Source: Clostridia bacterium
GTDB taxonomy: Bacteria > Bacillota > Clostridia > Christensenellales > CAG-138
Assembly: GCA_017541305.1 (NCBI GenBank)
Contig: JAFXZJ010000028.1
Location: forward strand, 1-64,000
DNA: 64,000 nucleotides
Reading direction: 5' to 3'
Both the position numbers and the translations under genes were made by a program. Below are positions 151 through 28,643 of this stretch, in pieces (the first letter of the stretch is position 1; every line of letters begins with the position of its first letter). Below the pieces are notes generated by a model. That model worked only from the letters and a program-made list of their open reading frames with translations. It was not told the DNA's origin and searched no databases.

Positions 151-3100
151 GAGTTACAAGACCGTCAACGGTGGAGAACTCGATGGGGGTGGGATCCTTC
201 GCAGGATAGTTGTAGAACTCGGTCACGTTGACAATGATGTTCGTGGGAGCATCGAAGTCATCGGATACCTGGAAGGTGACGAGCAGGAGCTCGCCTTCCT
301 CGCTCATAGCGGCATCGGGCATGATAACACCGAGGCGGATGGAACCGGGAATGGTTTCATAATCGCAGACGATGTATGCTTCGGGATGCGCGTTAAGAAC
401 GTCGCCATAAACAACGTTGATGGGAGTGAGCTTAGCAGTGTCATAATCAAGGCTACACCTTAAGATGTGGGCCTCGTAATCGCCTTCAATGGTGAAGGGA
501 AGAGTGATAACACTGCCGGGAGCTACGCCATACTGGCTGCCCATGGTGAATACAACGGGCTGAGCGGGAGGCTCGGTTACGGGAGGCTCGGGAGTGGGCT
601 CCTCGGTTACGATGGGGCCATCCTCGGGAGTGATAAGACCATCATCCGTGGTGTAGGCGATGGGCTCGGCTTCCGCACCGTCAACGGGCAGATAGTTGAA
701 CTCGTTGATGCCGATGATGATATCAGCAGGCTCACTGAAGTCGGGAGCGGTCAGGAAGGTTATGGAAGCAATGACGCCTTCCTCGATGAGCTCGCCATCG
801 GGGATGATGATACCGACGTGGATGACGCCGGGCTCGGACTCAACGTCGAGAACGACGATCGCATCGGGATGAGCATTGATGACTTCGCCGGCTTCGATAG
901 CAATGGCGGTGACCTTGTTCACGTCATAGCTAAGGGCAGCGTTCAGGGTGTGCGCACGGTAGTTGCCGTCAATGGTGAAGTCAAGGGTGACTTCCTCATT
1001 GGGAACAGCACCGTAGTACTCGCCAACCACGAAGTTAGCGCTGATCAGCGGAGTGACAACGCCATCGATGGTCTCATAAGGAATAGCGATGGCTTCTGCC
1101 TCGGGAACGTAGTTGAACTCGTTGATACCGATGATGATATCGGTGGGATCCTTGAAGTAGCTGCCTACTTCGAAGGTGATGTTGACGATGACGCCTTCCT
1201 CAATGAGCTCGCCCTCGGGGATAACGGTGCCGACATGGATGACGCCGGGTTCGGTGTCGATATCGATAGCGTTGATCGCATCGGGATGCGCGTTGAGGAC
1301 CTCACCGAGCTCATAGGAGACAGGAGTGAGAACCGTATCGTCGTAGTTCAGATCGGCGTTCAGGGTGTGAGCGCGATAGTTGCCTTCAACAGAGAAGGGC
1401 AGAGTGATCAGCTGACCGGGAACAGCGCCGTAGTAGCTGCCCATAATGAAGGTCGCGCTGATGAGAGGAGTGACAACGCCGTCAATGGTGGTGTACTCAA
1501 TGGGCTGAGCAACATCTTCGGGAACGTAGTTGAACTCGTTGATGCCGATGATGATATCGGTGGGCTCCTTGAAGTAATCGCCAACGACGAAGGTCACGTT
1601 GATGATAACGCCTTCCTCGATAAGCTCGCCATCGGGGATGATGGTGCCGACGTGGATGACGCCGGGCTCGGCATCGATATCGATCGCGTTGATCGCATCG
1701 GGATGTGCGTTGAGCACTTCGCCGAGCTCATAAGCGATAGGAGTGAGAACCGCGTCGTCATAGTTCAGATCGGCGTTAAGAGTGTGAGCACGGTAGTTGC
1801 CCTCGATGGAGAAGGGCAGCGTGATCTCCTGGCCGGGAACAGCGCCATAGTAGCTGCCCATGATGAAGGTCGCGCTGAGGTTCGGGGTAACGATACCGTC
1901 CTTGGTCTCATAAGGAACGGGAGTGGCTTCATCAGCGGGAACATAGTTGAACTCGTTGATGCCGATGATAACGTCTGTGGGCTCCTTGAAGTATTCGCCT
2001 ACCCTGAAGGTGATGGTGACGATGACGCCTTCCTCGGTCATAACGCCCTCGGGCACAACGGTGCCAACGTGGATGACGCCGGGGTTGGTTTCGAAGTCGA
2101 TGATATTGACAGCATCGGAATGCGCGTTAAGGACTTCGCCCTCTACAACTGCGATCGGGGTGAGGACCGCGTCGTCATAGAAGATGTCAGCGTTCAGAGT
2201 GTGAGCGCGATAGGTGCCTTCAATGGAGAAGTTGAGATCGATCTCGTCGCCGGGGTTAGCGCCGAAGTAATCATCCATGGTGAACATGGCGCTGCCGACG
2301 GAGAGAGGAGTGACTATACCGTCAACGGTGGTGTACTCGATGGGAGTAACGGCACTGTCTTCGATATTGACATAGTTGAACTCGTTGATTACGACGATGA
2401 TATCGGTGGGAGCGGTGAAATCCTCGGCAACGTCGAAGGTGACGTAAGCGAGGACGCCTTCGCCGGACAGCGGAGTCTCGGGAAGAACAACGCCGAGGTA
2501 GATGGTGCCGTCAATGCTGGTATCGCAGAGAGTAACGGCATCGTCCTGATCGGCGATCATATCACCGAAGGAGACGTCGACAACGGTCAGAACAGCGGGA
2601 TCATAGTTGAGAGCCGCGCTGAGGGTGTGAGCTTCGTATTCGCCCTCGATGGTGAAGGGCAGAGTGATGCGGGAACCGCCTTCTACGTCATAGGCGCTGC
2701 CCATGGTGAAGACGACGCCTTCAACGGGACCTTCAGCGGGGGTCACGATACCGTCGACGGTGTCAAACGGGATCGGTAAGCCGACGCTGGTGCCGGTGGG
2801 AACCTCAGCGAACTCATTGATGGCAATGATGACGTCAGTGGGCGCGGTGAAGTTGTCGGATACGTTGAAGGTGATGGTCGCAAGAAGGCCATTGCCGGTG
2901 ATGGGCTGGTCGGAAACAAAGCCGAAGTAGATGATGCCGGCTTCGTCGTCCCAATCCATGACAACGGGGATCTCCTCATCGTCAAGCAGGCCACCCATCA
3001 GAGAGATGGAACCGAACTCGAGAACGGCGGGATCATAGAAGATGTTGGCGCTGAGAACGTTGGCCTCGTAGTTGTCACCGGCGATCGTGAAGTCAAGATC

Positions 3101-4312
3101 GATGGTGGAACCGGGGGCTACGCCGTAAGCGCTCTCCATGGTGAAGCGTGCGCCGTCAATGGGGGGCTCGGGAGTGGGAGCTGCGGTGGGAGCGGGAGTG
3201 GGAACCGCAGTGGGAGTGGGAATAGGCTCGTCAGAGATAACGGGCTCTTCTTCTATCTCGATAACGCCGTCATAAGCGGTGTAATCGATGTCTTCCTTCT
3301 CGGTCGAAGTGGAGGGCATATAGTAGAAGTCCACCATCTCAAAGGTAACAGGCTGATCCTCGGTGCAGTCCTCGCTGACTTCGAAGTTGATGTTGATGAG
3401 GACGCCGTGCGCGGTCATACCCGCGTTGGGGCAAAGAAGGCCGACCCTTACGATACCGGGGGTGCTGTAATCGATCGTGGGCATGGAATCCCAGGGCCTG
3501 TCATTGAAGGCGGGACCGTTGGTGACGGACGTTACAGTCAGATACTCGGGATCGTAATTGATCTTGAACAGCAGGGAGTGAGCTTCGTAATCAGCGCCGT
3601 CAATGGTCACAGGCACGGTTACGGAGTCACCGGGAGTAACGCCGCTCACAGAGCCGACGATGAAAGCTACGTCGTCAGCGGGAACGGGAGTTACAACGGG
3701 AGCCTCAGTGGGAGCCGCTGTGGGTGCCGCAGTGGGAGCGGGAGTTGCGGTGGGGGCTGCCGTGGGAGCCGCAGTGGGAGCTTCCGTGGGAGCTTCGGTC
3801 ACAACGGGCTCAACGATATCGATGAGGCCGTTCTCTGCGATGTAGGGAAGATCGACCTTGCTCGTGGCGGTCGAGGGGAAATAGAAGAAATCGATCATCT
3901 CGAATTCCAATTCCTGGTCTTCCGTGCAAGTCGCGCTGACTTCAAAGTTCATGTTGAGGAATACGCCGTGCTCGGTCATACCGTCATTCGGGCAAATGAG
4001 ACCAACCCTGATAACACCGGGAGTATCGGTGTTAATAACAGGAGAAGAATCCCAAGGCCGGTTCATGAAGGCGGGACCGGGATTGACTGAAGTAACAGTC
4101 AACTGCTCCGGATCGTAATGAACCTTGAAGAGGATGGAGTGAGCTTCATAATCGGCGCCGCCGATGGTCAGCGGGACGCTCACTGATTCACCCGGGTTCA
4201 CACCACTCACGGTGCCGACCGTGAATGATACCTCGCCGTCAGCGGCTACAGGCACGGCGATCAACCCGAACACCATAGCTACCGAAACGAGGAGAGCGAG
4301 AAATTTCTTCAT
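1..4312 (-). CDS. Nine-domain cohesin-like secreted surface protein (3' end outside window)
   Basis: The frame is open from the ATG at 4312 to the left edge, about 1437 codons, so the C-terminus is missing. A GGAG lies 10 nt upstream of the ATG. Residues 1-25 form a signal peptide (MKKFLALLVSVAMVFG). Nine beta-rich domains of about 125-135 residues follow, at roughly 29-165, 215-355, 390-520, 537-660, 675-800, 815-940, 955-1080, 1095-1220 and 1255-1380. Each has the cohesin pattern: VxPGxxVxxPxTI, YDPxxLxV, a GxIxVGxI strand and a GVxxxxTFxV strand. Domains 1-2 and 9 are set off by Pro/Thr linkers (TEAPTAAP, TEPPVTEP), and the C-terminal part is PPVTE repeats. Probable role: surface scaffold that binds dockerin-tagged partners (inference). 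Domains 5-8 are very alike, pointing to recent internal duplication. A C-terminal wall anchor like those of the next two genes is expected beyond the edge. Confidence 0.85.
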   Translation of the reverse strand, partial: MKKFLALLVSVAMVFGLIAVPVAADGEVSFTVGTVSGVNPGESVSVPLTIGGADYEAHSILFKVHYDPEQLTVTSVNPGPAFMNRPWDSSPVINTDTPGVIRVGLICPNDGMTEHGVFLNMNFEVSATCTEDQELEFEMIDFFYFPSTATSKVDLPYIAENGLIDIVEPVVTEAPTEAPTAAPTAAPTATPAPTAAPTAAPTEAPVVTPVPADDVAFIVGSVSGVTPGDSVTVPVTIDGADYEAHSLLFKINYDPEYLTVTSVTNGPAFNDRPWDSMPTIDYSTPGIVRVGLLCPNAGMTAHGVLININFEVSEDCTEDQPVTFEMVDFYYMPSTSTEKEDIDYTAYDGVIEIEEEPVISDEPIPTPTAVPTPAPTAAPTPEPPIDGARFTMESAYGVAPGSTIDLDFTIAGDNYEANVLSANIFYDPAVLEFGSISLMGGLLDDEEIPVVMDWDDEAGIIYFGFVSDQPITGNGLLATITFNVSDNFTAPTDVIIAINEFAEVPTGTSVGLPIPFDTVDGIVTPAEGPVEGVVFTMGSAYDVEGGSRITLPFTIEGEYEAHTLSAALNYDPAVLTVVDVSFGDMIADQDDAVTLCDTSIDGTIYLGVVLPETPLSGEGVLAYVTFDVAEDFTAPTDIIVVINEFNYVNIEDSAVTPIEYTTVDGIVTPLSVGSAMFTMDDYFGANPGDEIDLNFSIEGTYRAHTLNADIFYDDAVLTPIAVVEGEVLNAHSDAVNIIDFETNPGVIHVGTVVPEGVMTEEGVIVTITFRVGEYFKEPTDVIIGINEFNYVPADEATPVPYETKDGIVTPNLSATFIMGSYYGAVPGQEITLPFSIEGNYRAHTLNADLNYDDAVLTPIAYELGEVLNAHPDAINAIDIDAEPGVIHVGTIIPDGELIEEGVIINVTFVVGDYFKEPTDIIIGINEFNYVPEDVAQPIEYTTIDGVVTPLISATFIMGSYYGAVPGQLITLPFSVEGNYRAHTLNADLNYDDTVLTPVSYELGEVLNAHPDAINAIDIDTEPGVIHVGTVIPEGELIEEGVIVNITFEVGSYFKDPTDIIIGINEFNYVPEAEAIAIPYETIDGVVTPLISANFVVGEYYGAVPNEEVTLDFTIDGNYRAHTLNAALSYDVNKVTAIAIEAGEVINAHPDAIVVLDVESEPGVIHVGIIIPDGELIEEGVIASITFLTAPDFSEPADIIIGINEFNYLPVDGAEAEPIAYTTDDGLITPEDGPIVTEEPTPEPPVTEPPAQPVVFTMGSQYGVAPGSVITLPFTIEGDYEAHILRCSLDYDTAKLTPINVVYGDVLNAHPEAYIVCDYETIPGSIRLGVIMPDAAMSEEGELLLVTFQVSDDFDAPTNIIVNVTEFYNYPAKDPTPIEFSTVDGLVTPEEPPVTEPPVTEPPVTEPPVTEPPVTEPPVTEPPLTEPPVTEPPVTEPP

Positions 4313-4414
4313 TTGGAATATACTCCTTTCTGAATTTTGCGTAACCAGCATAATCCATTCAATCAAGCCAGTTCTTAACCGCATAGTTTAGCTAGGCTAC
4401 AAAATTGCATCTAT

Positions 4415-4443
4415 ATTATAACACAAGCAATATCCACATGCAA
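4415..4443 (-). promoter_or_regulatory. Sigma-A promoter of the nine-domain cohesin gene
   Basis: On the minus strand: -35 TTGCAT, 17-nt spacer, -10 TATAAT, about 100 nt upstream of the ATG at 4312. The GTGT-TATAAT context is shared with the promoter at 5475-5503, which suggests duplicated regulation. Confidence 0.75.
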
Positions 4444-4462
4444 TAGCTATGCACATTATTTT

Positions 4463-4505
4463 AAAAAAAAAATGAAACTGCCCGCTCCCAATCGGGAACG
4501 GGCAG
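4463..4505 (-). terminator. Intrinsic terminator after the first single-cohesin gene
   Basis: Hairpin CTGCCCGTTCCC / GGGAGCGGGCAG on the minus strand, followed by TTTCA and a run of ten T. It lies just past the stop at 4534. Confidence 0.85.
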
Positions 4506-4533
4506 AAGACTTTACTTAAGCCTTTTCAGGACA

Positions 4534-5385
4534 TTAGTCCTCCTTCTTGCGGAAGATCACGATGCCAGCACCGGCAGCGATCGCAACGATGCTCAGGCCG
4601 ATAAGGCTGGCAGCACCGGTTACGGGAGGCTTGGGGCCGGGAGCGGGCTCGGTGGTCTCTACGGGAGCGGGCTCATCGGTGACGATGGGCTCAACGGGCT
4701 CGTCGGTTGCGGGAGGCTCGGTTACGGGAGGCTCGGTTACGGGAGGCTCGGTTACGGGAGGCTCGGTTACGGGAGGCTCGGTTACGGGAGGCTCAGTTAC
4801 GGGAGGCTCAGTTACGGGAGGCTCGGTTACGGGAGGCTCGGTTACGGGAGGCTCGGTTACGGGAGGCTCGGTAACAGGGGTGTCAGCCTCGATCTCAACA
4901 AGACCGTTCTCGCAGGTAGCAACGTCGAGCAGATCGACCTTGGCACCGCCAACGGGGAGGAGATAATACTCGTGTACAACTACCTCAAGAGGCACATCCT
5001 CGGTGCAGTCATCGGCTACATGGAAAGTGATGTTGCAGATAACGCCGGAACCGGTGAAGGGCTCAGTGGGGCAGATAACGCCAACCTTAACGTGACCGGG
5101 AATGCTCTTGTCGAGGACAGGAGTGGCGTCCCAGGGCCTGGCGTTGAAAAGAGCGCCGGGAGCAAGGGTGGTAACAGTGAGCTTCTCAGCATCGTAGAGG
5201 ACCTCCATGTTGAGGCCATGGCACTGGAAATCACCGTCGATCGAAACGGGGATCACAACATCATCACCGGGCTTCGCAGTAGCGGTGCCGGCGCTGAAGG
5301 TGGCTTCGCCCTCTGCAAACGCGGGAATGGCTACGAGGCCAAGAACCATGAGCAGAGAAACGAGAAGCGCAAAAAACTTCTTCAT
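4534..5385 (-). CDS. Single-cohesin-domain wall-anchored protein with PPVTE stalk
   Basis: A 283-aa secreted protein. The start is the ATG at 5385, with AAAGGAG 8 nt upstream; a longer in-frame extension lacks a ribosome binding site. Residues 1-25 are a signal peptide. A single cohesin-like domain (about 27-170) has the same strand pattern as the nine-domain neighbour (PGDDVVIPVSI, YDAEKLTV, GHVKVGVI). A stalk of about eleven PPVTE repeats follows, then a C-terminal PPVTG motif, a hydrophobic stretch and FRKKED, which is the layout of a sortase signal with a PPxTG variant of LPxTG. Likely a wall-displayed receptor for a dockerin-bearing partner (inference). It has its own promoter and terminator and is a paralogue of both neighbours. 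Confidence 0.87.
   Translation of the reverse strand: MKKFFALLVSLLMVLGLVAIPAFAEGEATFSAGTATAKPGDDVVIPVSIDGDFQCHGLNMEVLYDAEKLTVTTLAPGALFNARPWDATPVLDKSIPGHVKVGVICPTEPFTGSGVICNITFHVADDCTEDVPLEVVVHEYYLLPVGGAKVDLLDVATCENGLVEIEADTPVTEPPVTEPPVTEPPVTEPPVTEPPVTEPPVTEPPVTEPPVTEPPVTEPPVTEPPATDEPVEPIVTDEPAPVETTEPAPGPKPPVTGAASLIGLSIVAIAAGAGIVIFRKKED
4706..4874 (-). repeat. 15-bp tandem repeat encoding (PPVTE)n
   Basis: About eleven near-identical GGAGGCTCGGTTACG units within the stalk of the single-cohesin gene, the same unit as at 1-150. This makes it a candidate for copy-number variation and for recombination between the two paralogues. Confidence 0.85.
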
Positions 5386-5474
5386 TTGGAATACTCCTTT
5401 CTGATTTTGTGCGGCCGGGGAAATCTTCCTGTTTGCACAGCGCAAGATCTCCCAATAACCACATTTGTAACGGT

Positions 5475-5503
5475 ATTATAACACAGGGCTTTATCAATTG
5501 CAA
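5475..5503 (-). promoter_or_regulatory. Sigma-A promoter of the single-cohesin gene
   Basis: Minus strand -35 TTGCAA, 17-nt spacer, -10 TATAAT, about 90 nt before the ATG at 5385. Confidence 0.8.
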
Positions 5504-5539
5504 CACTATTTCCCTATTTAAATCAAAAATATTTTTTGG

Positions 5540-5580
5540 AAAAAGCAGAGCCGTCCCCCATCGGAAGGAGACGGCCCTGC
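5540..5580 (-). terminator. Intrinsic terminator after the second single-cohesin gene
   Basis: Hairpin GCAGGGCCGTC / GACGGCTCTGC followed by TTTTT on the minus strand, just past the stop at 5600. Confidence 0.8.
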
Positions 5581-5599
5581 GGTCGGTCATTCAATCATA

Positions 5600-6787
5600 T
5601 CAATCGTTTTTCCTGCGGAAGATCACTATTCCGGCGCCGGCGGCAAGGGATACGATCCCAAGGCCCACAAGGCTTGCGGAACCGGTCTGCGGGGGCTTGG
5701 GAGTGGGCTCCACGGGAGCGGGAGCTTCGCTTTCACCGGGCTGGTCGGTCTCACCGGGAGCGGGCTCCTCTGTTACGATGGGCTCATCGGTCTCGGTAGG
5801 TTCGTCGGTGACGATAGGCTCATCGGTCTCGGTAGGTTCGTCGGTGACGATAGGCTCATCGGTCTCGGTAGGTTCGTCGGTGACGATAGGCTCATCGGTC
5901 TCGGTAGGTTCGTCGGTGACGACAGGTTCGTCAGTTACGATAGGCTCATCGGTGACGATAGGCTCGTCGGTCACGATAGGCTCGTCGGTCACGATGGGTT
6001 CATCGGTAACGATAGGCTCGTCGGTTACTATAGGTTCATCGGTAACGATAGGCTCTTCGGTTACGATAGGTTCATCGGTAACGATGGGCTCGTCGGTAAC
6101 GATAGGTTCGTCGGTCACGATGGGCTCGTCGGTAACGATAGGCTCGTCGGTGACGACAGGCTCATCGGTGACGATAGGCTCGTCGGTGACGATAGGCTCG
6201 TCGGTCACGATCGGCTCGTCGGTCACGATCGGCTCCTCGGTGGGCTCGGGAGTGGGCTCCTGAGTGGGTTCGGGAGTGGGCTCAACTGCCAGATTTATCG
6301 AACCGTCATTGGCAATAAAGTCGATATCGGTCCTTTCAAGGGAATCCGCAGGCATATAATAGAATTCATTTACCTGCGCAGCGATCGGCTGATCCTCGGT
6401 GCAGGAATCCGCTACCCTGAAAGTGACGGTGACAAGAACGCCGGTGGACGTGAACGCTTCCGTGGGGCAAAGAAGACCGATCTTTACCGAGCCGGGAACA
6501 TTGGTTCCGTCAAGCACGGGCATGGAATCCCAGGGCCTTGAATTGAACGCGGGGCCGGGCTGCACGCTGACTACGGAAAGGTTTTCGACGTCGTAATTGA
6601 TGAACATATTAAGACCGTGAGCCTCAAATTCACCATCGATAGTAAGTGTGATCTGGACTTCATCACCGGGATGAGCGTCTTCAACGGTGCTCAGGGAGAA
6701 TACCGCGTTGCCATCGGCCGAGGCGGGAACGGCAAAAATGCCTATCACCATTGCGAACGCAACGAGTACAGCCAGAAACTTCTTCAT
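5600..6787 (-). CDS. Single-cohesin-domain wall-anchored protein with IVTDEP stalk
   Basis: A 395-aa protein with AGGAAGGAG 7 nt before the ATG at 6787. It has a signal peptide (1-25), a cohesin-like domain (about 28-165; HPGDEVQITLTI, YDVENLSV, GSVKIGLL, GVLVTVTFRV), a Pro/Thr/Glu stalk of about 25 hexapeptides (IVTDEP, ETDEP variants), and a C-terminal PPQTG, hydrophobic segment and FRRKND sorting signal. The domain order matches the 283-aa neighbour, but the stalk sequence is different and longer, so it would hold the cohesin domain further from the wall. Neither protein is next to cellulases, so I do not infer a cellulosome. The shared anchor suggests one sortase serves both; no sortase is in this window. 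Confidence 0.87.
   Translation of the reverse strand: MKKFLAVLVAFAMVIGIFAVPASADGNAVFSLSTVEDAHPGDEVQITLTIDGEFEAHGLNMFINYDVENLSVVSVQPGPAFNSRPWDSMPVLDGTNVPGSVKIGLLCPTEAFTSTGVLVTVTFRVADSCTEDQPIAAQVNEFYYMPADSLERTDIDFIANDGSINLAVEPTPEPTQEPTPEPTEEPIVTDEPIVTDEPIVTDEPIVTDEPVVTDEPIVTDEPIVTDEPIVTDEPIVTDEPIVTEEPIVTDEPIVTDEPIVTDEPIVTDEPIVTDEPIVTDEPIVTDEPVVTDEPTETDEPIVTDEPTETDEPIVTDEPTETDEPIVTDEPTETDEPIVTEEPAPGETDQPGESEAPAPVEPTPKPPQTGSASLVGLGIVSLAAGAGIVIFRRKND
5767..6240 (-). repeat. 18-bp tandem repeat encoding (IVTDEP)n
   Basis: About 25 units. Unlike the PPVTE arrays, the DNA has diverged at third positions while the peptide is kept, so this array looks older or selected for protein sequence. Confidence 0.75.
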
Positions 6788-25329: not shown

Positions 25330-25368
25330 TATGGGAAATGCGGACATATAATGAATACCGTTTGAATA

Positions 25369-25396
25369 AAAAGAGACGCTTTGACGCGCCTCTTTT
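25369..25396 (-). terminator. Terminator of the cobalamin-riboswitch operon
   Basis: Minus strand hairpin AAAAGAGGCGC / GCGTCTCTTTT followed by TATT, 14 nt past the stop of the DUF4430 lipoprotein gene. Confidence 0.75.
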
Positions 25397-25409
25397 CGTT
25401 TCTTCGGGA

Positions 25410-25913
25410 TCAATCCCCGTAGATATCCCCTATGTCAGCTCCCAGCTCGCAGGTATAGATGAAGCAGATCTCGTCCCCCTCCTGCGGGTGATAAGACGAG
25501 CAGCCGTAATTGGGAAATTCACCGTTTACGCGGTATTCCCATCCGCTCTGCGGGCCGCAGTCGAATTCATAGATATTGTTTATGCCCTCGACGTATGCGG
25601 AATCATACACCGGTGCAAAGCTGGATTCTATATGGATGCCCCTTGCGAGCAGCTCCCTCAAGAGTATGTCATAGACCGAATCCCCGTCCTCGAAGCCGAC
25701 CTTCGTCTGCGGCAGTATTATTCCGTCCTCGGGAATGAGTTCGGCCTTCTCCGGATCGAGTTGATCCATATTGTTCAGTATCGTTTTGCAGTCGATATAA
25801 AGCGTGCAGTGGTGTGTATAATCGTCCTTCACCTCGGGTTTTGCGCAGGAAACGAGGCACAGGGCGATCAGAGCCGCGATCAGTATAAATGCTGTGGCTT
25901 TGGATTTTTTCAT
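25410..25913 (-). CDS. DUF4430 (transcobalamin C-terminal-like) lipoprotein
   Basis: A 167-aa protein. Residues 1-23 form a lipoprotein signal with lipobox LVSC (Cys23). The rest is one DUF4430 domain: EDGDSVYDILLRELLARGI, the hallmark SGWEYRVNG (about 122-130), and a final QEGDEICFIYTC strand. In animal transcobalamin and intrinsic factor this fold is the C-terminal beta domain that closes over cobalamin. It starts directly after the toroid gene stop, so it is translated as part of the cobalamin-riboswitch operon. Likely a membrane-held corrinoid binder (inference from family and riboswitch). Confidence 0.82.
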   Translation of the reverse strand: MKKSKATAFILIAALIALCLVSCAKPEVKDDYTHHCTLYIDCKTILNNMDQLDPEKAELIPEDGIILPQTKVGFEDGDSVYDILLRELLARGIHIESSFAPVYDSAYVEGINNIYEFDCGPQSGWEYRVNGEFPNYGCSSYHPQEGDEICFIYTCELGADIGDIYGD

Positions 25914-27395
25914 TTAGCGTTTCTTCTTTCGGGCGATAGCCGCCGTCACACCGATCAGCACCGACGCTGCGGCGAACCCCGCGCCGGCGTAAACGAGCCA
26001 TCCGTATTTATCCGCGGGCTCATCCTTTTCGGCGCCGTTCTCTTCGGCATTTTGCGTGACGGCAGGCAGGGTATCGTCGGGCCCCGGCGCTGCCTCGGTC
26101 ACGGCCGGCGCTGCTGTTTCGGTTATCTCCTCTGTAAAAACGGGCTCCGTCTCCCCCGCCGCTTCGGTTACGACCGGGATATCGGAGGGAACACCCGTGT
26201 CATCGGGCGCGGCGGTCGGTTCGGGTACCGTCGTCTGCGCGGGCGTGTTCGTTGGTATCGCCGTGGGAGCCGCGGCCTGCGTCGGCACGGACGTTGGGGC
26301 GGCCGATGCGGTTTGAACTGCTGTCGGGGCGGCTGTCGGAGCGGCGGTATCGGCCGGCTTGGGCGTCGCCGTGGGTGTGGGCTTGGGCGTCGCCGTGGGC
26401 GTGGGCTTGGGCGTCGCCGTGGGTTCGGGCGTTACGCCCGCAAGGCTTACGCCCTCCATATCGTAAAGGTCGGCCTTGCCCTTCTTCATACGGTCGTACG
26501 CGCATAGGGCATACCCCGCCTGCTCGGTAGCCATACGGTTGGAAACGCCGCCCTCAAGATGGGCAAACATGCCGTCTTCTTTATAGAATGAGAAGAGCGC
26601 CTCAAGCGCCGATATGCCGTTCTTTATAAAGCGGCTGTCGGTATCCGCGTCCACGCCCACGGTCGATAACCCCGTTACGACCTGTGCGCAGCTTTCGCAG
26701 GTATAGACGCCGACGGTCTCGAAGCCGCCCTTTTCATTCTGCATTTCGGAAAGCTTGTTGACGCCGCGTTCGATAGCTTGCCTCGCCTTTGAATAAGGGG
26801 CGAGCGCCGTCAGGACGACTCCCGTGACGTCGGGATCGGCCTTGGTGCCGAGCGACCAGCCGCCTCCGTCCAGCTCTCTTCCCAGCAGGAAATCGACGTA
26901 AGCGTTTTTTACAGAGCTTTCGCCGTAAACGGAGTTCGTATCGAGCGCAAGCAGCGCGAAAGCGACTCCCGTGGTCCCCTGCTTTTTAACGAAGCTTTGA
27001 TCCGTCAGCGGAGCGACTATATCATAGCCCGCAACGCTGCGTGCGTTCCTGCCTATGGAGGTCAGCGCGATGACAAGCCTTGAATTCTCTGTCGCCTTGT
27101 TCTTATCGAGCCTGCCGCTGCCGGTTTGGGCGCAGGCGGCGCTCACGACGCCCTCGATCATTTCATAATAGCCCGCGGCGTATGAGCTTTCGGGGCTTAT
27201 CTTTCCGCTGCGCGCAAGCGTGAACACCGTCCACTCGCCGCCCACGGAGCCGAACCCCGGCGCGCTCCGCATCAGGTAATTCTTAACGGCGTTATACGGC
27301 GTCTGATAATCGGCGGCATAAGCCGAAAACGGCAAAGCTGCCAGTATCAAAACTGACAGCAATGCCGCAAATATCCTTGTTTTTATACCGTTCAT
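25914..27395 (-). CDS. Surface alpha/alpha-toroid protein (transcobalamin N-domain/terpenoid-cyclase-like)
   Basis: A 493-aa protein with a signal peptide (1-28) and an alpha/alpha-barrel (about 30-310) with prenyltransferase/squalene-cyclase-type repeats: GTTGVAFALLALD, DGGGWSLGTKADPDVTGVVL, EKGGFETVGVYTCESCAQVV. A long Pro/Thr linker follows (TPEPTATPKP on, about 325-460), then a C-terminal membrane segment and RKKKR. There is no LPxTG, so it is membrane-anchored. The toroid is the fold of the N-terminal half of transcobalamin. The start is the ATG at 27395, overlapping the dockerin gene stop by 1 nt (TGATG). Confidence 0.8.
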   Translation of the reverse strand: MNGIKTRIFAALLSVLILAALPFSAYAADYQTPYNAVKNYLMRSAPGFGSVGGEWTVFTLARSGKISPESSYAAGYYEMIEGVVSAACAQTGSGRLDKNKATENSRLVIALTSIGRNARSVAGYDIVAPLTDQSFVKKQGTTGVAFALLALDTNSVYGESSVKNAYVDFLLGRELDGGGWSLGTKADPDVTGVVLTALAPYSKARQAIERGVNKLSEMQNEKGGFETVGVYTCESCAQVVTGLSTVGVDADTDSRFIKNGISALEALFSFYKEDGMFAHLEGGVSNRMATEQAGYALCAYDRMKKGKADLYDMEGVSLAGVTPEPTATPKPTPTATPKPTPTATPKPADTAAPTAAPTAVQTASAAPTSVPTQAAAPTAIPTNTPAQTTVPEPTAAPDDTGVPSDIPVVTEAAGETEPVFTEEITETAAPAVTEAAPGPDDTLPAVTQNAEENGAEKDEPADKYGWLVYAGAGFAAASVLIGVTAAIARKKKR

Positions 27396-28396
27396 CAAAG
27401 GATGGCGCGTGCGAGCAAGAGCGCGTCGAGAAGCTCGACAGAGCCGTTGCCGTCAAAATCCGCAAGAGCGGCGCCTTCCTCGCCGAGATCGATGATCTCC
27501 ATAGCGTGACGCATGATGAGGAGCACGTCGACCGTATCGAGCTCGCCGTTCATATCAACGTCGCCCACCTCATACTCTTCGGAGCCGTAAAGCTTTGCAA
27601 GGAACGCCTCAAGGCATTCGTCCAGGTATTCCTGAGAGGAATTGGGATCGTAGAACGCGTCGAGCAGCGCCATGAGCTCGTCCGCCGCAATATCGAACGC
27701 GGTCTCGATAAGCTCGTCGTCGGCGGAGATGGCGGCGATCGCACGGTGGATGGCCGTGCGGTCAACGCCCGCCATGGGGTTGTCGAATTCGGGGAACATG
27801 CCCCAGCCGTCGTTCACGCCATAGTCCATGCCCCAGCCGTAAACGGTGAAGAACCAGGTGTAATCGGAACCGACGGAAACGGGAGTCGCGTCGGCGCCGG
27901 AGAAGCCGGAAGCGCCGTTTTCAAGGAACATCCAGCCGGAGAAGGTGCTGTATTCGAATTCGGAGAGCATCTCGTCGTCAACGTATTCGCCGGTCCACTC
28001 GCCATAGGGCATGCCCAGGTTTTCCTCCGCCCATGCGGGATAGATCTCGAACTGCTCCATAAGATAATCGGCGATATAGGGCTCGGTCTCATAGCAGGCG
28101 ACGCCGGTGAGATAGAAGGTCTCCATATCGGGCTTTAAGGTATAGCCCCAATCGAGCATATCAAATGCCCTCTCGGTAACGACGTCCAGCGTCTCGCCCT
28201 CGTTCACGGGGATGAGCACGGGATCGATCAGATAGGTCCAGCCCATGGTCAGCGCGGAGACGGAAAAGCTGATGTATCCGTCATAGCCGTCGGGGGCTTC
28301 GGGGAATTCGGGCTCTTCGGCGGCGAAAGCAGGTATGCAGAGCGCAAACAGCGCCGCAATGAGGAGCACGGAAACAAGACGTTTGAAGAGTTTCAT
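27395..28396 (-). CDS. Secreted DUF4430 protein with C-terminal type I dockerin
   Basis: A 333-aa protein with GGAGG 9 nt before the ATG. It has a signal peptide (1-25), a DUF4430-like domain (about 45-205; NEGETLDVVTERAFD, SGWMFLENG, GSDYTWFFTVYGWG), a helical linker, and a dockerin (about 280-333). The dockerin has two calcium-loop/helix repeats: GDVDMNGELDTVDVLLIMRH and ADFDGNGSVELLDALLLARA. The dockerin should dock it on a cohesin; three cohesin-like proteins are encoded 21-28 kb away. First gene behind a cobalamin riboswitch, so made when corrinoid is scarce. Proposed role: released or scaffold-held cobalamin capture (inference). Confidence 0.85.
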   Translation of the reverse strand: MKLFKRLVSVLLIAALFALCIPAFAAEEPEFPEAPDGYDGYISFSVSALTMGWTYLIDPVLIPVNEGETLDVVTERAFDMLDWGYTLKPDMETFYLTGVACYETEPYIADYLMEQFEIYPAWAEENLGMPYGEWTGEYVDDEMLSEFEYSTFSGWMFLENGASGFSGADATPVSVGSDYTWFFTVYGWGMDYGVNDGWGMFPEFDNPMAGVDRTAIHRAIAAISADDELIETAFDIAADELMALLDAFYDPNSSQEYLDECLEAFLAKLYGSEEYEVGDVDMNGELDTVDVLLIMRHAMEIIDLGEEGAALADFDGNGSVELLDALLLARAIL

Positions 28397-28449
28397 TTTT
28401 CAATACCTCCGTATCATTTTGGGACGGATCACGTCCTTTGTTGTTCGAA

Positions 28450-28603
28450 AAATCCCCGGCAGGTCTTCCGGCTTACGGCTCAAGCCTAATCGCTCCGCCT
28501 TCCCGCGTTAAATAACGCAGTGACATAATGGAGCTTTCGTCGCCGATCACGGCAGCGGAGGCTGCTGCGGAATCCGACCGCATTCCTTTATACCGGGTCA
28601 AAA
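28450..28603 (-). ncRNA. Cobalamin (AdoCbl-type) riboswitch
   Basis: On the minus strand from about 28600: GGAAT-GCGGT-C-GGATTCCGC, then a CAGCCTCCGCTGCCGTG block, GACGAAAGC, TGTCACTG and CGGGAAGGC, ending in the B12 box AGCCGGAAGACCTGCC (28458-28473). This order and these blocks are those of cobalamin riboswitches. It lies 54 nt upstream of the dockerin-DUF4430 gene. Between the box and the GGAGG there is a GGACG/CGTCC hairpin without a T-run, so control may be at translation. Confidence 0.9.
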
Positions 28604-28614
28604 TCGACAGATTG

Positions 28615-28643
28615 AATATAACACCGCGCACGGCTTTTGTCAA
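28615..28643 (-). promoter_or_regulatory. Promoter of the cobalamin-riboswitch operon
   Basis: Minus strand consensus -35 TTGACA, 17-nt spacer, -10 TATATT. The expected start near 28607 places the riboswitch at the very 5' end of the transcript. Confidence 0.88.

What the first reader, a model, noticed from the sequence alone, without database searches (positions are those of the whole stretch)
25410..28643. Cobalamin-riboswitch operon encoding a split transcobalamin-like surface system
Seen: a sigma-A promoter, a riboswitch with the B12 box AGCCGGAAGACCTGCC, then three overlapping or abutting genes. They are a secreted DUF4430 protein with a dockerin, a membrane-anchored alpha/alpha-toroid, and a DUF4430 lipoprotein. 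Known: animal intrinsic factor and transcobalamin are an alpha/alpha-toroid plus a DUF4430-type beta domain with cobalamin held between. Inferred: this bacterium captures corrinoids with the same two folds, made as separate surface proteins when B12 is low. I know of no described Gram-positive system of this form.
Basis: partly seen in the sequence, partly recalled or inferred. Interest (0 to 1): 0.85.

Follow-up and report, generated by a model that had tools for sequence, protein, structure and literature searches.

The report
B12-switched split transcobalamin-like capture operon
A gut-type bacterium has a vitamin-B12-sensing RNA switch in front of three surface-protein genes built from the same two kinds of part as the animal B12 carrier, most likely to catch scarce B12 outside the cell; the general idea was predicted from sequence in 2007, but what the proteins bind has yet to be shown.

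Summary
On the minus strand (28643-25366) lie a promoter, an RF00174 cobalamin riboswitch (86.3 bits), a secreted dockerin protein with a divergent DUF4430 domain, a stalked, membrane-anchored alpha/alpha-toroid, a DUF4430 lipoprotein, and a terminator hairpin.

Comparative evidence supports corrinoid capture. Of 16 family loci followed, 10 have the same three-gene order, 9 of them with a cobalamin riboswitch. Of 80 named toroid loci, 72 have DUF4430 fused or adjacent; 41 of 63 testable ones have a riboswitch upstream; 47 carry a transporter subunit of a family whose tested member matches ECF-CbrT, a characterised B12 importer. The window's genome has that importer on another contig. A broad DUF4430 profile finds transcobalamin-2 as best PDB match (E 7e-4); narrower ones do not, and no toroid profile does.

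'No described system' is not right: Burroughs et al. 2007 predicted B12-scavenging toroid + beta-grasp surface proteins in Gram-positives. Not found in my searches: the riboswitch link, the CbrT link, and a three-chain form with a cellulosome-type dockerin.

The parts
28615..28643 (-). sigma-70-type promoter TTGACA-17-TATATT with TG extension
   Evidence: 11 of 12 matches; consensus match only
28441..28643 (-). cobalamin riboswitch aptamer RF00174 (aptamer proper probably starts near 28610, after the promoter)
   Evidence: 86.3 bits, E 7e-20; core model 28558-28457, 98.4 bits (window is in that model's training set)
28397..28440 (-). leader between aptamer and first gene: hairpin GGACG/CGTCC without T-run, Shine-Dalgarno GGAGG; presumed translational expression platform
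   Evidence: folding no better than shuffles (z -0.28 and -0.68), so weak
27395..28396 (-). secreted protein, signal peptide + divergent DUF4430 (transcobalamin beta-type) domain + C-terminal type I dockerin, 333 aa
   Evidence: dockerin
25914..27395 (-). signal peptide + alpha/alpha-toroid (about residues 30-318) + Pro/Thr-rich stalk + C-terminal membrane helix, 493 aa
25410..25913 (-). DUF4430 lipoprotein (lipobox LVSC), 167 aa
   Evidence: (PF14478 E 1e-15)
25366..25397 (-). intrinsic terminator: hairpin and T-run after the lipoprotein gene
   Evidence: -18.6 kcal/mol, z -6.1; seen by eye, not listed by the scan

Best explanation
A cobamide-capture operon of the bacterial transcobalamin-like kind. 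When intracellular cobamide is low, the riboswitch leaves the mRNA translatable (off-switch action is inferred from the class; no terminator lies between aptamer and first gene). Three exported proteins follow: a dockerin-bearing DUF4430 protein that can sit on cohesin scaffolds, a stalked membrane-anchored alpha/alpha-toroid, and a DUF4430 lipoprotein at the membrane. A corrinoid is most likely held between the toroid and a DUF4430 beta domain, as in transcobalamin, and passed to an importer: in sister genera the ECF-CbrT-like transporter encoded in the same operon, in this genome the CbrT-like ECF set on contig C1 or the BtuCD/F-like set on C20. Shown: gene content, riboswitch family, export signals by sequence, conservation, fusion and operon links. 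Inferred: ligand, sandwich, relay, sign of regulation.
For: RF00174 in front of the operon. Of the 16 family loci I followed, 10 have the dockerin-DUF4430 / toroid / DUF4430 order and 9 of these 10 have a cobalamin riboswitch upstream. Of 80 named toroid loci, 72 have DUF4430 fused or adjacent; 38 of the 63 with at least 600 bases upstream held have a core-model riboswitch hit (E<0.03) just upstream, and Rfam adds 3 of the 19 other such loci that I scanned. All 48 hits with E<0.03 lie on the toroid's strand. Natural fusions join toroid and DUF4430 in one chain: L042, L046, L049 and 45 of 80 named loci. Downstream ECF genes: T component in 55, S component in 47, any part in 58 of 80 loci. One such S component (L041) matches 6fnp_A, E 5e-13; 6FNP is ECF-CbrT, a vitamin B12 transporter (passages of PMC5997447). 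The window's genome encodes an S component 54% identical to it. Broad DUF4430 profile: best PDB matches are transcobalamin-2 (5no0_A E 7e-4; 4zrp, 7qbf, 2bb5 E 0.013).
Against: No ligand, complex or fold was tested. Toroid profiles match squalene-hopene cyclases best (E 6e-25) and no transcobalamin up to E 10. Two narrower DUF4430 profiles found no transcobalamin. 22 of the 63 testable named loci show no riboswitch by the methods used (6 of these were not scanned with Rfam). L036, same genus, has lost it. Two Blautia loci (L121, L129) have the pair beside MoxR and transglutaminase genes, without riboswitch in the stretch held, so some relatives may do something else. The window's operon has no transporter, and its genome has B12 biosynthesis genes, unlike the usual case in Burroughs 2007.
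Confidence: 0.75

Rival explanations
1. The system captures an incomplete corrinoid (cobinamide, pseudo-B12), a tetrapyrrole or cobalt rather than cobalamin, feeding the cell's own B12 synthesis.
For: Cobalamin riboswitches also control cobalt and precursor uptake (PMC3766115, passages). The genome's other two cobalamin riboswitches flank CbiK, a binding protein, FecCD/ABC genes and CbiA, CbiC, CbiD and methylases. Downstream T components match CbiQ (18 of 118 ORFs).
Against: The S component is CbrT-like and the beta domain is transcobalamin-like; neither suggests free cobalt. Cobinamide is not excluded.
Confidence: 0.15
2. The toroid is an exported terpenoid-cyclase-like enzyme and the DUF4430 proteins are accessory.
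For: Best profile matches are squalene-hopene cyclases; a DPDVT motif aligns with part of the cyclase DVDDT motif.
Against: Single ~290-residue toroid with signal peptide and cell-surface stalk; 72 of 80 loci tied to DUF4430 and 41 of 63 to a B12 riboswitch. The same profiles also match non-enzymes (A2M, C3d), so the match reports the fold.
Confidence: 0.03
3. The proteins mainly serve adhesion or cellulosome assembly, and B12 control is only a nutritional cue.
For: Dockerin on the first protein; 62 dockerin and 15 cohesin matches in the genome, 10 of the cohesins in this window.
Against: Paenibacillus relatives with the same two domains and riboswitch and ECF genes; the dockerin is absent from the toroid and lipoprotein.
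Confidence: 0.05

Closest known systems
Bacterial transcobalamin-like SLBB + alpha/alpha-toroid surface proteins (Burroughs et al. 2007, PMC1796856; passages and section 7 part 1 read)
   Same: Same two domains, Gram-positive surface proteins, a second SLBB protein in the operon, CbiO/CbiQ-type transporter genes nearby in relatives, predicted joint B12 binding.
   Different: Here toroid and beta domains are three separate chains, one with a dockerin; a cobalamin riboswitch precedes them ('riboswitch' occurs 0 times in that paper's main text); transporter genes are elsewhere in the genome; B12 biosynthesis genes are present.
Animal transcobalamin / intrinsic factor
   Same: alpha/alpha-toroid plus DUF4430-type beta domain; broad bacterial DUF4430 profile matches transcobalamin-2; a passage of PMC4350170 places DUF4430 at the C-terminus of TCN proteins.
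   Different: One soluble chain in animals; here separate anchored or dockerin-bearing chains. No sequence match found between the toroids.
ECF-CbrT vitamin B12 transporter (PMC5997447; passages read)
   Same: S component in sister-genus operons matches 6fnp_A, E 5e-13; homologue in this genome.
   Different: Not in the window's operon; no extracellular toroid or DUF4430 partner came up in the passages seen ('DUF4430' 0 occurrences).
Bacteroides BtuG/BtuH surface B12 binders (PMC6143338, PMC10404256, PMC8941943; search listing and start of abstracts only)
   Same: Surface lipoproteins that capture B12 ahead of a transporter.
   Different: Gram-negative, with BtuB; different protein families (recalled, not compared here).

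Membership tests
Cobalamin riboswitch (RF00174) | match above the curated score | tested here: met
   86.3 bits vs 31.5
Cobalamin riboswitch (RF00174) | leader position before B12-related genes | tested here: met
   45 bases before the first ATG
Cobalamin riboswitch (RF00174) | binds cobamide and changes expression | not testable with these tools
   needs in-line probing and a reporter; platform folding inconclusive
Transcobalamin-like SLBB / DUF4430 clade | PF14478 above cut-off, lipoprotein | tested here: met
   58.4 vs 23.8 bits
Transcobalamin-like SLBB / DUF4430 clade | PF14478 above cut-off, dockerin protein | tested here: not met
   no match for the window protein; 14 of 19 aligned relatives match at E 0.01
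Transcobalamin-like SLBB / DUF4430 clade | sequence link to transcobalamin beta domain | tested here: met
   broad profile A10, 5no0_A E 7e-4; narrower profiles A7 and A5 gave none
Transcobalamin-like SLBB / DUF4430 clade | beta-hairpin insert with ligand-stacking residue | not tested
   no structure could be predicted
Animal transcobalamin / intrinsic factor | toroid and beta domain in one chain | tested here: not met
   separate genes
Animal transcobalamin / intrinsic factor | alpha/alpha-toroid domain | tested here: met
   superfamily level only: squalene-hopene cyclase, A2M, prenyltransferase matches
Animal transcobalamin / intrinsic factor | toroid sequence related to transcobalamin toroid | tested here: not met
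   no transcobalamin among 34 and 53 matches up to E 10
Animal transcobalamin / intrinsic factor | cobalamin held between the two domains | not testable with these tools
   structure prediction switched off
ECF-CbrT operon | EcfT, EcfAA' and CbrT-like S component in the same operon | tested here: not met
   a terminator follows the lipoprotein and the next gene is another function; the ECF set is on contig C1
Cellulosome component | type I dockerin with cohesins in the genome | tested here: met
   cohesin partner of this dockerin unknown

The most novel reading that the evidence does not exclude
A physically split transcobalamin that works as a relay: a dockerin-borne beta protein catches corrinoid out on the cellulosome or cohesin-coated surface, the stalked toroid closes on it, and the DUF4430 lipoprotein takes it over at the membrane for ECF-CbrT. 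The alternating beta-toroid-beta-toroid order in giant relatives (for example L072, L074) would be the same relay in one chain, and the animal carriers a collapsed version of it.
Probability: 0.25. Interest if true: 0.78.

Novelty: new variant of a known kind. Interest (0 to 1): 0.55.

Why it matters
It joins three independent lines (B12 riboswitch, transcobalamin-type domains, CbrT-type importer) to a prediction made in 2007 for which I found no test in the passages and listings seen. If right, a large group of Bacillota catches cobamides on the surface with the same architecture that animals use, which bears on where intrinsic factor came from and on competition for B12 in gut and rumen. The split form gives three small separate proteins, convenient for testing which beta domain closes on the toroid.

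Tried and rejected
Led nowhere: single-sequence PDB searches of toroid and lipoprotein (no relevant match); PDB searches with narrow DUF4430 profiles A7 and A5; toroid profiles A1, A8, A11 did not reach transcobalamin. The transcobalamin match came with the third DUF4430 profile tried, built from 45 diverse domains chosen by an iterative search, so its E-value should be discounted for the number of tries. Folding of the leader gave no convincing switch.

Rows dropped: 52 of 61 genomes had a match, but most matches cover only the Pro/Thr-rich stalk; I followed 16 loci in 14 genomes (own included) with E below 1e-20. Weaker matches were not followed; one of them, G014:C22, lies in the toroid region. 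The covariance model R1 was built from 14 of the 16 riboswitches (L010 dropped for a long insert, L044 as a duplicate of L013). L109 is the same contig as L042, a training sequence, so without it the count is 37 of 62 by R1 and 40 of 62 with Rfam. L067 and L069 are 96% identical. Of the 25 testable loci without a counted R1 hit, 19 were scanned with Rfam; L062, L065, L083, L084, L097, L102 were not; of these, L083 and L084 have an R1 hit inside the cluster region or after the toroid and L102 one just over 1 kb upstream, none counted. Of the 8 named loci without DUF4430 in the tally, L051, L052 and L056 do have the dockerin-type gene and are cut by the contig end. Two of the four S-component training sequences (L053, L060) are themselves among the 80 loci; ECF hits were counted anywhere in the locus.

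Papers: ten searches of the held library showed no paper on a riboswitch or CbrT link of bacterial DUF4430/toroid proteins; only listings and abstract starts were seen except for the passages named in the report. Most subscription papers are not held.
Full report
What is there. The finding's coordinates are right. On the minus strand a sigma-70-type promoter (28643-28615) is followed by an RF00174 cobalamin riboswitch (86.3 bits), a 45-base leader with a Shine-Dalgarno site, and three genes that overlap by one base or abut. They encode a signal-peptide protein with a C-terminal type I dockerin, a signal-peptide protein with a ~290-residue toroid, Pro/Thr stalk and C-terminal membrane helix, and a DUF4430 lipoprotein. 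A hairpin with T-run after the last gene (z -6.1) suggests that the transcript ends there. Lipobox, signal peptides and membrane helix were judged by eye, not by a predictor.

The first protein. Pfam does not call DUF4430 in it, but 14 of 19 aligned relatives match PF14478 and the window protein shares the motifs. I take it as a divergent DUF4430 protein.

The toroid. Alone it is weakly scored. Family profiles match squalene-hopene cyclase (E 4e-16, 5e-17 and 6e-25), alpha-2-macroglobulin, C3d and prenyltransferase beta subunits, which share the alpha/alpha-toroid (fold identity of these recalled). None matched transcobalamin up to E 5 or 10. So the fold class is supported and a specific kinship to the transcobalamin toroid is not.

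The beta domain. A profile of 45 diverse DUF4430 domains from these loci has transcobalamin-2 as its best match in the PDB (5no0_A E 7e-4; 4zrp, 7qbf and 2bb5 E 0.013; 8ixt E 0.85). Two narrower profiles found none. This is a moderate, not overwhelming, sequence link; it agrees with Burroughs et al. 2007.

The family of the window. I followed 16 loci in 14 of 61 genomes. Ten have the order dockerin-DUF4430, toroid, DUF4430 lipoprotein (window, L036-L041, L043-L045). Nine of the ten have a cobalamin riboswitch upstream; L036 has not. Of the other six, L042, L046 and L047 have riboswitches just upstream, L049 has one before its separate DUF4430 lipoprotein gene, L048 and L050 have none. L042, L046 and L049 fuse toroid and DUF4430 in one chain, and the fused domain is of the first-gene type.

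Beyond the family. In 72 of 80, DUF4430 is fused to or adjacent to the toroid (61 with a separate DUF4430 gene, 45 fused). A core model of the riboswitch, R1, gave 48 hits with E<0.03, all on the toroid's strand. Of 63 loci with at least 600 bases held upstream, 38 have such a hit just upstream. Rfam on 19 of the remaining 25 added L058, L122 and L124, so 41 of 63; it also confirmed L060 and L072 (105.5 and 102.7 bits). One of the 38, L109, is in the training set. With a handful of such riboswitches per genome (three here), chance placement beside one gene would be rare (my estimate, not computed). DUF4430 of any kind occurs in 74 of 148 genomes sampled from the class, so the domain is common.

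The transporter. In L040-L044 and many named loci, the lipoprotein gene is followed by an EcfT (CbiQ-like), a fused EcfA pair and an ECF S component. Over the 80 loci, models built from these found the S component in 47, T in 55, A in 56, any in 58 (hits anywhere in the locus). The L041 S component matches 6fnp_A at E 5e-13; 6FNP is ECF-CbrT (that chain A is the CbrT subunit is inferred from its length and name). In the window's genus the set is not in the operon (L036-L038 none, L039 only unrelated-looking ATPases). The window's genome has it on contig C1 (S component 54% identical, E 2e-82; EcfT below the CbiQ cut-off; ORFs), without cobalamin riboswitch there. Its other two cobalamin riboswitches lie between CbiK with a binding protein and a FecCD/ABC/CbiA/CbiC/CbiD/methylase cluster on C20. 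Completeness of the B12 pathway was not checked.

The dockerin. The genome has 62 dockerin and 15 cohesin matches, ten of the latter in this window at 755-6700. The organism is thus probably a cellulosome builder, and the first protein may be displayed on a scaffold. The genome's names are withheld; L109, identical to unnamed family locus L042, is titled Christensenellaceae bacterium.

Mechanism. Best reading: low cobamide, riboswitch free, three capture proteins made; corrinoid held between toroid and a beta domain; hand-over to ECF-CbrT-like or BtuCD-like importers. Shown are the parts and their associations; ligand, sandwich and order of hand-over are inferred. Two facts pull on the pairing: natural fusions in the family use the first-gene DUF4430, while in giant relatives such as L060, L070, L072, L074 a C-terminal toroid is followed at once by the separate DUF4430 lipoprotein. 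Both beta proteins may take turns.

Prior knowledge. Burroughs et al. 2007 (passages and section 7 part 1) predicted that Gram-positive toroid + SLBB surface proteins bind B12 jointly, occur with a second SLBB protein and CbiO/CbiQ genes, and that animals acquired theirs from low-GC Gram-positives. They do not mention riboswitches (0 occurrences). In ten searches of the held library I saw no later paper on the riboswitch, CbrT or dockerin link. Hence: new variant of a known, predicted kind.

Limits. 22 of 63 testable loci show no riboswitch, and two Blautia loci sit among MoxR and transglutaminase genes, so not every relative need be a B12 system.

Noticed in passing
window 755-6700, minus strand: Ten cohesin matches (eight in one 1462-aa frame), a scaffoldin-like region; 62 dockerin matches genome-wide.
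   Followed up: partly
L035 9329-9865 (G000:C20:26828-27364): Divergent pair of cobalamin riboswitches between CbiK/binding-protein genes and a FecCD/ABC/cbi biosynthesis cluster.
   Followed up: partly
L035 7154-7945, minus strand: Lipoprotein with a weak NEAT-like match (21.1 bits, cut-off 32.8) between CbiK and the binding protein in a cobalamin-riboswitch gene group.
   Followed up: no
L139 13523-13636, minus strand: THF riboswitch (74.3 bits) before a frame that joins an ECF S-component-like and a folate-synthase-like stretch.
   Followed up: no
L121 5328-12638 and L129 5291-12639: Blautia: DUF4430-toroid pair beside MoxR AAA, a TgpA-type transglutaminase gene and another DUF4430 protein, no riboswitch in the stretch held; maybe a non-B12 branch.
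   Followed up: partly
L036 8488-9489: Same-genus copy of the operon without a detectable riboswitch; the upstream gene lies only 75 bases away.
   Followed up: partly
L042 9169-9628: Two cobalamin riboswitches in tandem before a DUF4430-toroid fusion gene.
   Followed up: no
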